Positions 1,021 through 3,381 of a stretch of DNA of 7,924 nucleotides are shown one piece after another. The first letter of the stretch is position 1. Each line of letters starts with the position of its first letter. Made by a program: the position numbers and the translations under genes. Source of the DNA: a bacterium (GTDB lineage: Bacteria; AUK180); the NCBI GenBank assembly GCA_030622125.1, contig JAUXGM010000102.1, positions 1-7,924 of the forward strand, written 5' to 3'. The notes below the pieces were generated by a model. That model saw only the letters and a program-made list of their open reading frames with translations, did no database searches and had not been told where the DNA came from.

Positions 1021-1932
1021 ATGAATTTTAAAGATGTTAATTGTCCCTTATGCAACAGCAACCAGAGGAAATTACTCTATAAAGGAAAATCCATTAAAAA
1101 CATTTCTAAAGAAAATTTCAAATGCACCTCTGAAGATCTTGCTGTATATAACAATATTTATAAATGCAAGAATTGTGATATGATCTATCAATCACCCATT
1201 TTAGATTCAGATATCATCATTGATATGTACAGAAGCATTCGTGATCCGGAATATCTTGAAAAAGAAAAAGAAAGAAGCCGTACATTTGAAAATTATGTCG
1301 ATCTTATTAAAAGATTTTTGAGAAAGGATTCAAAAATATTGGAGATTGGTTCTTATACCGGTGTTTTTCTTAAACTTATGAAAGATCAAAATTTTATGAT
1401 AGAGGGACTTGAACTTTCTGATTGGGCACAGGGTATCTCTAAAAAAAATATTGATGTACCGATTTACAAAGAGGAATTAGGAGAATTTTGCAAAAAAAGG
1501 ACAGAACTTTATGACGGGATATGCCTCTGGGATGTTATAGAACACTATGATAAGCCGCTCGATGAACTGCAATTTATGAACAAGATACTTAAAAAAAACG
1601 GCTATTTATTTCTATATACGGTAGATGCCGGAAGTTATATTTTCAAATTACTTGGAAACAAGTATCCTTTTTTAATGATAATGCACCTTGTCTATTTTTC
1701 AAGAAAAACCATAAGAAAGGCATTAGAAAAGAGAGGCTTTAAAGTTATTTTAATAAACCGGCATAAAAGATATATATCAAAAAAATATCTCTTCAATAGA
1801 TTTGATATTATTTCCGGTAGGTTTTCATTTATCTTTAAAAAAATTGCTGCACTTTATTTTGATATTACGAAAAAAGAATTTATACCTATTGATTTTATGG
1901 GACTGATGGATGTTGTTGCAAAAAAAACATGA
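1021..1932 (+). CDS. Zinc-ribbon class I SAM-dependent methyltransferase
   Basis: A 303-aa cytoplasmic protein. The N-terminus has paired cysteines (CPLC 8-11 and CKNC 49-52) that look like a zinc ribbon, an arrangement common in methyltransferases acting on sugars or other glycan intermediates. The Rossmann-type core follows: motif I LEIGSYTG (107-114), acidic strand-2 end GLELS with Glu131 (probable SAM ribose contact), and the post-II/III block WDVIEH (170-175), a strong signature of the Methyltransf_11/23 type. The ATG at 1021 is the only possible start: there is no in-frame ATG, GTG or TTG between it and the upstream TGA at 988-990, and the zinc ribbon begins at residue 8. No Shine-Dalgarno sequence precedes it. 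Its last 23 nt overlap the glycosyltransferase gene, suggesting coupled expression. Methylation of a cell-surface sugar is inferred; the actual substrate cannot be read from the sequence. Confidence 0.85.
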   Translation: MNFKDVNCPLCNSNQRKLLYKGKSIKNISKENFKCTSEDLAVYNNIYKCKNCDMIYQSPILDSDIIIDMYRSIRDPEYLEKEKERSRTFENYVDLIKRFLRKDSKILEIGSYTGVFLKLMKDQNFMIEGLELSDWAQGISKKNIDVPIYKEELGEFCKKRTELYDGICLWDVIEHYDKPLDELQFMNKILKKNGYLFLYTVDAGSYIFKLLGNKYPFLMIMHLVYFSRKTIRKALEKRGFKVILINRHKRYISKKYLFNRFDIISGRFSFIFKKIAALYFDITKKEFIPIDFMGLMDVVAKKT

Positions 1933-2635
1933 GATCATAAATAAAGGTGTCATACTAATTCCTACTTATAATGAAAGCGAAAACATAGAGAAACTAATAC
2001 GGAAAATAAAGGCTATTATCCCACAGATAGCTATCTTTGTAATTGATGATAGCTCTCCTGATGGTACTGCAATGATTGTGAGAAATCTGGAAAATGAATT
2101 TGCTGATGTTAAACTTATCTTTAGAAAAGAAAAAAAAGGGCTTGGTGCAGCATATATTAATGGAATGACAGTCGCATTAAAAAATAATTTCGATTACATA
2201 ATTATGATGGACAGTGATTTTTCGCATAATCCTTCTTATGTTCCAATAATGCTAAATAGTATGAAAAAGTTTGATGTGGTAATTGGTTCTCGCTATATAA
2301 AAGGTGGTTGTATAAAGAATTGGCCAATGCATAGAAAAATAATGAGTTTTATAGCAAATTTTATGATCAGGATACTTGTTGATTCAAAGATTAGAGATAG
2401 TACATCCGGATTTAGATGTATAAAAAGTGAAATTCTAAAAAAAATAGATTACTCTACAATACATTCTCAGGGATATTCTTTTTTGTATGAAATGCTCTGG
2501 CGGATTGAAAGACAAAAATTTAAGATATTGGAAATCCCCATCACTTTTGTTGATAGGAAGTTTGGACAGACAAAGATATCCCAAACAGAAATTTTCAAAG
2601 CCGCAAATACCTTAATTAAACTGATATTTAAATAG
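1910..2635 (+). CDS. Family 2 glycosyltransferase, polyprenyl-phosphate mannose synthase (DPM1) type
   Basis: A 241-aa protein with the DPM1-like GT-A fold. Visible motifs are PTYNE (18-22), the nucleotide-binding DDSSPDGT (46-53), the metal-binding DxD block DSDFSHNP (101-108), GSRYIKGG (126-133) and DSTSGFRC (163-170). The C-terminal region has the usual DR..G..K.S..EI helix pattern. Members transfer a sugar, often mannose or glucose, from a nucleotide donor to polyprenyl phosphate at the inner membrane face. This copy has no C-terminal membrane segments, so it is the soluble, single-domain form and appears full length. The ATG at 1910 lies inside the methyltransferase gene in the +1 frame, with only a weak GGGA (1899-1902) before it; the first 12 or so residues are not conserved-looking. 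The stop TAG (2633-2635) sits at the tip of an inverted repeat. Donor specificity is uncertain. Confidence 0.88.
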   Translation: MLLQKKHEIINKGVILIPTYNESENIEKLIRKIKAIIPQIAIFVIDDSSPDGTAMIVRNLENEFADVKLIFRKEKKGLGAAYINGMTVALKNNFDYIIMMDSDFSHNPSYVPIMLNSMKKFDVVIGSRYIKGGCIKNWPMHRKIMSFIANFMIRILVDSKIRDSTSGFRCIKSEILKKIDYSTIHSQGYSFLYEMLWRIERQKFKILEIPITFVDRKFGQTKISQTEIFKAANTLIKLIFK

Positions 2636-2660
2636 TGCCGGCATCTTATATCTTATTTTC
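2635..2660 (+). repeat. Left arm of the 26-bp imperfect inverted repeat
   Basis: It begins with the last base of the glycosyltransferase TAG stop codon and pairs with 2784-2809, with mismatches at four positions. If the flanking bases are included, the match extends outward through the stop codon and three further A/T pairs (2630-2634 with 2810-2814). Confidence 0.75.
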
Positions 2661-2783
2661 ATAATAATTATTGTTTCTCCAAAAGTATTTCCATAAAAAA
2701 CATTTTATTTTAATAATAGAATTTCCCTATGTTTATTCCAATAAAATTCTAAAATATAATAAAAAAATTGATCAATATTTCGG

Positions 2784-2809
2784 GTAAATAAGATATAAGA
2801 GGCTGGTAC
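2784..2809 (-). repeat. Right arm of the 26-bp imperfect inverted repeat
   Basis: This is the reverse-complement partner of 2635-2660. Its outer end is the final G of the pyrE TAG stop codon on the minus strand, so the two convergent genes are followed by nearly the same sequence. Confidence 0.75.
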
Positions 2810-3381
2810 TATTTTATTTTCGTCCCAGGTGCTTTTATCGGTACTCCTTTTTTACAAAGTGGGCATTCCGATGGTTTATAAACCGGAAAATCAAGTGTAA
2901 TTAAACTTTTATATTCATAATTTTCAAATGGATTATCCTTACATCTTTTAATAATAGAGGTTACTCCGACAATATTTCCGCTCATTGATCTTACAAGTTC
3001 AATGACCTCCTTTACCGAACCACCCGTTGTAACGACATCTTCACAGACCAAAACATTTTCATCTTTTTTTATATGAAAATTTCTACGGAGCATCATCACA
3101 CCGTTTTTCCTTTCTGCAAATATTGAACGAGCATTTAATACCTTTGCAAGTTCAAACGAAAGTATAACCGCTCCCATTGCAGGACCGATTACAAGGGCTA
3201 TTTTTTTTTTCTTCCATTTTTTTCCAAGTTCTAATGCAATATCTTTGGCAATATTCGGATATTCGAACAGTTTCGCACATTGGATATAATTTTCAGAATG
3301 ATTGCCTGATGCGAGAACAAAATGGCCGGTCAAAAAAGCATCCGTATTCTTTAAAATATTGATTATCTTATCTCTCTCCAT
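2809..3381 (-). CDS. pyrE: Orotate phosphoribosyltransferase (Thermus-type PyrE)
   Basis: A 190-aa cytoplasmic enzyme converting orotate plus PRPP to orotidine 5'-monophosphate, the penultimate step of UMP synthesis. The PRPP-binding loop is VLVCEDVVTTGGS (110-122). Other family marks are LASGNHSENYIQ (23-34), the GPAMGA segment (66-71) and the ERKNGVMMLRR flexible loop (90-100). The tail with C173-P-L-C176 followed by KKGVPIKAPGTK is typical of the Thermus-type PyrE family; the two Cys may be structural or metal-binding (inference). The start at 3381 is supported by AGGAGA (3386-3391). It is the last gene of the five-gene operon, 16 nt after tex. Residues 57-60 (KKKK) are encoded across an A10 run (3201-3210), an unstable tract. 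The TAG stop abuts the inverted-repeat element. Confidence 0.93.
   Translation of the reverse strand: MERDKIINILKNTDAFLTGHFVLASGNHSENYIQCAKLFEYPNIAKDIALELGKKWKKKKIALVIGPAMGAVILSFELAKVLNARSIFAERKNGVMMLRRNFHIKKDENVLVCEDVVTTGGSVKEVIELVRSMSGNIVGVTSIIKRCKDNPFENYEYKSLITLDFPVYKPSECPLCKKGVPIKAPGTKIK

What the first reader, a model, noticed from the sequence alone, without database searches (positions are those of the whole stretch)
2635..2809. Compact inverted-repeat element, probable IS630/Tc1-type MITE
Two 26-bp arms matching at 22 positions enclose 123 nt of non-coding, very AT-rich DNA with further nested palindromes, and both outer ends abut TA. Size, arm length and TA flanks fit a non-autonomous mariner-like element. 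If it is a family, it would be a useful marker for an otherwise undescribed transposase in this genome.
Basis: partly seen in the sequence, partly recalled or inferred. Interest (0 to 1): 0.6.

Follow-up and report, generated by a model that had tools for sequence, protein, structure and literature searches.

The report
Orphan miniature element with tyrosine-transposase-type ends
The inverted repeat is real and looks like a tiny non-autonomous mobile element, but its ends match those of tyrosine (HuH, "RAYT/TIRYT") transposase genes found in sister bacteria, not those of an IS630/mariner transposon, and it lies exactly between two converging genes, with both of their stop codons inside its ends.

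Summary
The arms (29 nt, 26 matching; 36 nt at 83%) far exceed chance, and the whole element is single-copy in its 2.08-Mb genome. Each arm reads TAG-TGCCGGC-like core + TCTTATA TCTTATT: a constant core plus two tandem 7-mers, overlapping the TAG stop of a glycosyltransferase gene on the left and of pyrE on the right. Across 84,980 species the exact arm pattern occurs only in Candidatus Mcinerneyibacteriota. Two same-class genomes of another family hold at least 97 copies of GGTGCCGGC + tail, mostly with a tandem 7-mer. They are intergenic, some abut stop codons, and some form inward pairs like this one. Identical ends flank a complete 1.09-kb element encoding a 305-aa Y1 "REP-associated" transposase. 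Most Y1 transposase genes in this phylum carry terminal inverted repeats (TIRs) built as core + tandem word, and those with GTGCC/GTACC ends cluster on the transposase tree. So the window holds an orphan TIR dimer of a TIRYT ("TIRtron") element: REPIN/MITE-like, probably immobile now because its genome lacks a matching transposase. IS630 is disfavoured: TA precedes 0 of 97 copies, and this genome has only an IS630 fragment.

The parts
2630..2658 (+). left arm (AAATAGTGCCGGCATCTTATATCTTATTT), TIR-like unit, outer end towards the glycosyltransferase gene
2786..2814 (-). right arm (AAATAGTACCAGCCTCTTATATCTTATTT on the - strand), TIR-like unit, outer end towards pyrE
2635..2643 (+). core of left arm, GTGCCGGCA
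   Evidence: matches the GGTGCCGGCC cores of 97 copies
2644..2657 (+). two tandem 7-mers of left arm, TCTTATA TCTTATT
2801..2809 (-). core of right arm, GTACCAGCC
2787..2800 (-). two tandem 7-mers of right arm, TCTTATA TCTTATT
2659..2785 (.). 127-nt AT-rich spacer, no ORF of 60 aa or more, no similarity to the transposase elements compared
1910..2635 (+). family-2 glycosyltransferase gene; its TAG stop (2633-2635) lies in the left arm
2809..3381 (-). phosphoribosyltransferase gene, pyrE-like; its TAG stop (2811-2809) lies in the right arm; C-terminus not visibly truncated against relatives

Best explanation
The 185-bp inverted repeat (2630-2814) is an orphan, non-autonomous dimer of terminal inverted repeats of a TIRYT element, i.e. 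an element moved by a Y1 (HuH, single catalytic tyrosine) 'REP-associated' transposase. Each arm is one TIR: an outer core (TAG-GTGCC type) that often lies at a stop codon, then two tandem copies of a 7-nt word. Shown: architecture, family membership of the arms, identity of related ends with the ends of transposase genes, and the absence of a matching transposase in this assembly. Inferred: that such a transposase recognises the pair (core plus word), excises or copies it as single-stranded DNA and inserted it here, next to or into the 3' ends of two convergent genes, leaving TAG stops at the element ends. It is now probably a fossil; as a long hairpin it may incidentally act on the 3' ends of both mRNAs.
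For: Arm pattern GTRCCRGYMTCTTATATCTTAT: exact hits among 84,980 species only in Candidatus Mcinerneyibacteriota CSMAG_1462 = G005 (records of the window's own genome may be left out there); with up to 3 mismatches 7 in G005, 6 in G006, 0 in the four same-family genomes, 1 in 138 others. Family GTGCCGGC[CAT]: 97 copies in 0.51 Mb, 90 intergenic (22% expected), period-7 tail in 70 (0 for periods 4-6 and 8-10). 18 copies within 15 nt of a stop in sense orientation, 0 antisense; 8 of these have the stop one base from GTGCC, much as in the window. Inward pairs like the window's with matching 7-mers: L154, L180, L150, L171. Complete element with the same end type: G006:C330 1339-2425, both ends AAGGTGCCGGCCCATGACATATGACATG, 305-aa Y1 transposase. 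Most Y1 genes of the phylum whose two flanks are held have core + word TIRs; of 27 ends examined 17 carry a perfect 6-nt tandem word against 0.7 expected. The eight RAYTs with GTGCC/GTACC ends are clustered on the tree (2 changes; 0 of 500 shuffles as low), five forming a 100/100 group. Window composition is native to G000.
Against: No transposase with the TCTTATA word was found, and G000 has no RAYT of the GTGCC clade. Single copy in this genome. No empty site is available, so insertion itself is not shown. The arms have GTGCC/GTACC directly after TA where the family usually has TAGG, TAAG or AAAG.
Confidence: 0.8

Rival explanations
1. A functional bidirectional 3'-end structure (terminator or mRNA-stabilising hairpin) shared by two convergent genes, whatever its origin. 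Not exclusive with the best explanation.
For: Convergent genes, both stops inside the arms, about 30-pair stem on both strands (z -5.2, -4.3); some related copies sit in sense orientation at stop codons.
Against: No intrinsic terminator pattern found; loop of 127 nt; related inward pairs also lie between divergent genes (L154, L150); pyrE's neighbours are not conserved in the same family. It does not explain the match to transposase ends.
Confidence: 0.25
2. An IS630/Tc1-mariner MITE with TA target duplication.
For: TA next to both cores; size; one DDE_3 fragment in the genome.
Against: TA precedes 0 of 97 related copies; the DDE_3 gene is a fragment at a contig edge with no similar arm nearby; only one copy of the element; arms match Y1-transposase ends.
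Confidence: 0.03
3. Two solo TIR units that arrived independently after each stop codon, or one unit duplicated in inverted orientation, rather than a dimer that moved as one.
For: Most copies in relatives are solos, some at stop codons; two inward pairs in relatives have different 7-mers (L141, L143).
Against: Both arms carry the rare TCTTATA word and similarity runs to 36 nt; inward pairs outnumber outward pairs, and 4 of 6 share their word.
Confidence: 0.3

Closest known systems
TIRYT / TIRtron repeats (Di Nocera and co-workers 2013, PMC3733652; mostly TnpA-REP subclass 2.1 in PMC6006769)
   Same: RAYT-like tyrosine transposase genes flanked by long TIRs; TIR copies dispersed singly, as dimers and in groups; most RAYT genes here have GGGGAC-type ends close to the reported GGGGWSAS.
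   Different: The window belongs to a GTGCC/GTACC core type; TIRs are built as core + two tandem words that differ between transposases, which I found no mention of in the two papers' text; this copy is alone, without its transposase.
REPINs (PMC3116915) and REP/BIME elements
   Same: Inverted doublet of a short unit with a variable spacer, hairpin-forming, intergenic, tied to RAYT genes; GTAG REP ends often supply a TAG stop to the neighbouring ORF (PMC3733652).
   Different: The unit is not itself a palindrome and has no 5' GTAG guide; the 127-nt spacing is longer than in the GI REPIN (71 bp between the first residues of its two 16-mers).
IS630/Tc1-mariner MITEs
   Same: Size, inverted ends, AT-rich interior, TA next to the core here.
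   Different: TA is not a family feature; no matching DDE transposase found.
Cyanobacterial STRR heptanucleotide repeats (from memory, not tested)
   Same: Tandem 7-nt words between genes.
   Different: Here only two words, behind a GC-rich core, and tied to a transposase end.

Membership tests
TIRYT-associated TIR dimer | unit of the same type as the TIRs of a Y1/RAYT gene | tested here: met
   core + tandem 7-mer shared in design with the ends of G006:C330, C356, G005:C343, G001:C145; the exact word TCTTATA was not found on a transposase gene
TIRYT-associated TIR dimer | inverted, inward-facing pair | tested here: met
TIRYT-associated TIR dimer | cognate transposase in the same genome | tested here: not met
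   G000's four RAYTs are not of the GTGCC clade; assembly 96% complete. Orphan copies are not excluded by the family's description, so the filing is as an orphan derivative
TIRYT-associated TIR dimer | mobility or empty site | not testable with these tools
   no second strain or species of this genus with the locus
REPIN/REP (canonical) | imperfect palindrome within each unit, with a 5' GTAG/GTGG guide | tested here: not met
   units carry direct repeats, no internal hairpin and no GTAG (reading of the arms)
IS630/Tc1-mariner MITE | TA duplication at insertion sites | tested here: not met
   0 of 97 related copies have TA before the core
IS630/Tc1-mariner MITE | DDE transposase gene with the same ends | tested here: inconclusive
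   only a DDE_3 fragment at a contig edge, no matching arm in the DNA held
intrinsic bidirectional terminator | GC-rich stem, short loop, T tract | tested here: not met
   loop 127 nt

The most novel reading that the evidence does not exclude
In this large group of tyrosine transposases the end is modular: a clade-wide core plus a tandem word (7 nt in the GTGCC clade, mostly 8-9 nt in the GGGAC clade) that changes from one transposase to the next and acts as its private address. The dispersed repeats, including the window's orphan, would record which transposases a lineage has hosted.
Probability: 0.35. Interest if true: 0.65.

Novelty: new variant of a known kind. Interest (0 to 1): 0.45.

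Why it matters
It turns an isolated inverted repeat into a marker of a poorly studied transposase group (TIRYTs) in an uncultured phylum, and gives a sharp, testable rule for what their ends look like: fixed core, then two copies of a transposase-specific word. How these RAYT-like enzymes recognise TIRs is left open in the cited papers. Paired transposases and ends from one phylum make it testable.

Tried and rejected
IS630/Tc1: DDE_3 search and TA test. Mis-binned contig: rejected by 4-mer composition (0.914 with own genome, 0.81/0.79 with G005/G006) and because G000 has no other close pyrE match. Integron attC-like cassettes: considered because copies follow stop codons in sense; no attC core was seen in the arms (by eye) and copies also sit upstream of start codons. 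Known RNA family: none in Rfam. Viral origin: exact pattern absent from viral contigs. Conserved synteny: pyrE neighbours differ in relatives. Spacer derived from a transposase element by deletion: no similarity to the five elements compared. Relatives' matches to the spacer look like low-complexity AT matches.

Full report
What is there. The window is a whole contig (G000:C179) of a 2.08-Mb, 96%-complete genome. Between a family-2 glycosyltransferase gene (1910-2635, +) and a pyrE-like gene (2809-3381, -) lies the inverted repeat. Chance is excluded: score 20 against at most 16 in 300 shuffles. The TAG stop codons of both genes are part of the arms.

Not a family in its own genome. A search of the genome returns only the element itself and its two arms against each other; a 15-mer of the arm has one other exact hit, inside protein-coding sequence in an unrelated context. 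Composition places the contig with its genome.

A family elsewhere. Searching relatives showed a strong hit to the left arm in another genome of the class. The arm pattern with up to 3 mismatches occurs 7 times in G005 and 6 in G006 (same class, other family), never in the four genomes of the same family, and once in 138 more distant genomes. An exact degenerate scan of one genome for each of 84,980 species found only Candidatus Mcinerneyibacteriota CSMAG_1462, which is G005. Loosening the tail revealed a large family GGTGCCGGCC + two tandem 7-mers, the 7-mer differing between subfamilies: ATGACAT, TCTGTCT, TTTACTT, AGGAGTT, TATGACT, TCTTATA.

Properties of the family. In 0.51 Mb of G005/G006 contigs there are 97 copies; 90 are intergenic where 22% would be expected, 70 have a period-7 tail, and none has any of the other periods tested. 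The letters before GTGCC are AG or GG in 83, TA in none. Eighteen lie within 15 nt of a stop codon, all in sense orientation; in eight the stop lies one base from GTGCC. In the window both stops overlap the first base of the core. The outer end is nearer to genes than the tail is (median 113 against 364 nt, p 5e-5). Six inward-facing pairs and one clear outward one lie within a few hundred bases; four of the six share their 7-mer. The window pair has the same anatomy as these. Gene calls here are simple ORF calls of 110 aa or more, not curated annotation, and most contigs were chosen because they hold copies.

The link to a transposase. Y1_Tnp (PF01797) genes occur in all seven genomes. Comparing each gene's two flanks showed that most carry inward inverted repeats scoring above every shuffle, on elements mostly 0.9-1.1 kb long. 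The repeats are GGGAC-type in most and GTGCC/GTACC-type in eight genes (two of these, at contig edges, with one end only). In both types the core is followed by a tandem word; 17 of 27 ends have a perfect 6-nt repeat at period 6-10 against 0.7 expected. G006:C330 is a complete example with exactly the ends of the ATGACAT solos and dimers; G006:C356 and G005:C343 carry TCTGTC-type ends. The RAYTs with GTGCC/GTACC ends are clustered on a protein tree (2 changes, 0 of 500 shuffles; five in one fully supported group). NCBIfam's REP-associated tyrosine transposase model matches the two proteins scanned, below its cut-off; Pfam Y1_Tnp is above its cut-off. In other phyla, several transposases similar to these also carry a core followed by a 7-nt tandem word, for example GGGGTCAGGTC-TTGACAT-TTGACA.

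Interpretation. The window element is a dimer of such ends without a gene: a MITE- or REPIN-like derivative of a TIRYT element. G000 has four RAYTs, three with GGGGAC ends and one with weak GGGAC-like ends, and none of the GTGCC clade, so the element is an orphan. Its partner may have been lost or be unassembled, or the dimer came from a relative such as those of the G005/G006 family. Whether it moved as a dimer, and by which enzyme, is inferred. A role in ending the two transcripts is possible and not exclusive; no classical terminator is present, but a stem of about 30 pairs forms on either strand.

Known and new. Di Nocera and co-workers named TIRYTs and TIRtrons and reported TIR repeats as singles, dimers and groups, and that GTAG REP termini often supply a TAG stop (PMC3733652). 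Quentin and co-workers place most of them in subclass 2.1 (PMC6006769). REPINs are the analogous doublets of canonical REPs (PMC3116915). The core-plus-tandem-word design and the GTGCC type in this phylum are not mentioned in the text of those papers as far as I could search them; figures could not be read.

Noticed in passing
L149 1339-2425 (G006:C330): Complete 1.09-kb TIRYT element: identical 28-nt ends around a 305-aa Y1 transposase; a good reference element for the family.
   Followed up: yes
L223, L225, L227, L246 (genomes G020, G026, G046): Y1 transposase genes in other phyla carry ends such as GGGGTCAGGTC-TTGACAT-TTGACATT, again core + tandem 7-mer, suggesting the end design is widespread.
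   Followed up: partly
L139 4136-4300, L140 4673-4830: Head-to-tail arrays (49-73 nt steps) of the repeat unit with GTGGAGAGTGG-like tails in G006.
   Followed up: no
L059 4557, L062 1036 and 4993, L144 about 2700: The GGTGCCGGCC-like core is also followed by longer GC-rich words (e.g. GACAAGCACCACATTGGGTGCTGTAC) that are not 7-nt tandems; a second class of partner sequence.
   Followed up: no
L206 (G002:C123): A Y1 transposase whose ends are themselves near-palindromic (GGTAAACTTT-GTGCC-GGCAC-AAAGTTTACC), between the TIR and REP types.
   Followed up: no
G000:C131 14270-14551 (L167): Fragment of an IS630-type DDE_3 transposase (104 aa) at a contig edge, the only one found in the genome.
   Followed up: partly
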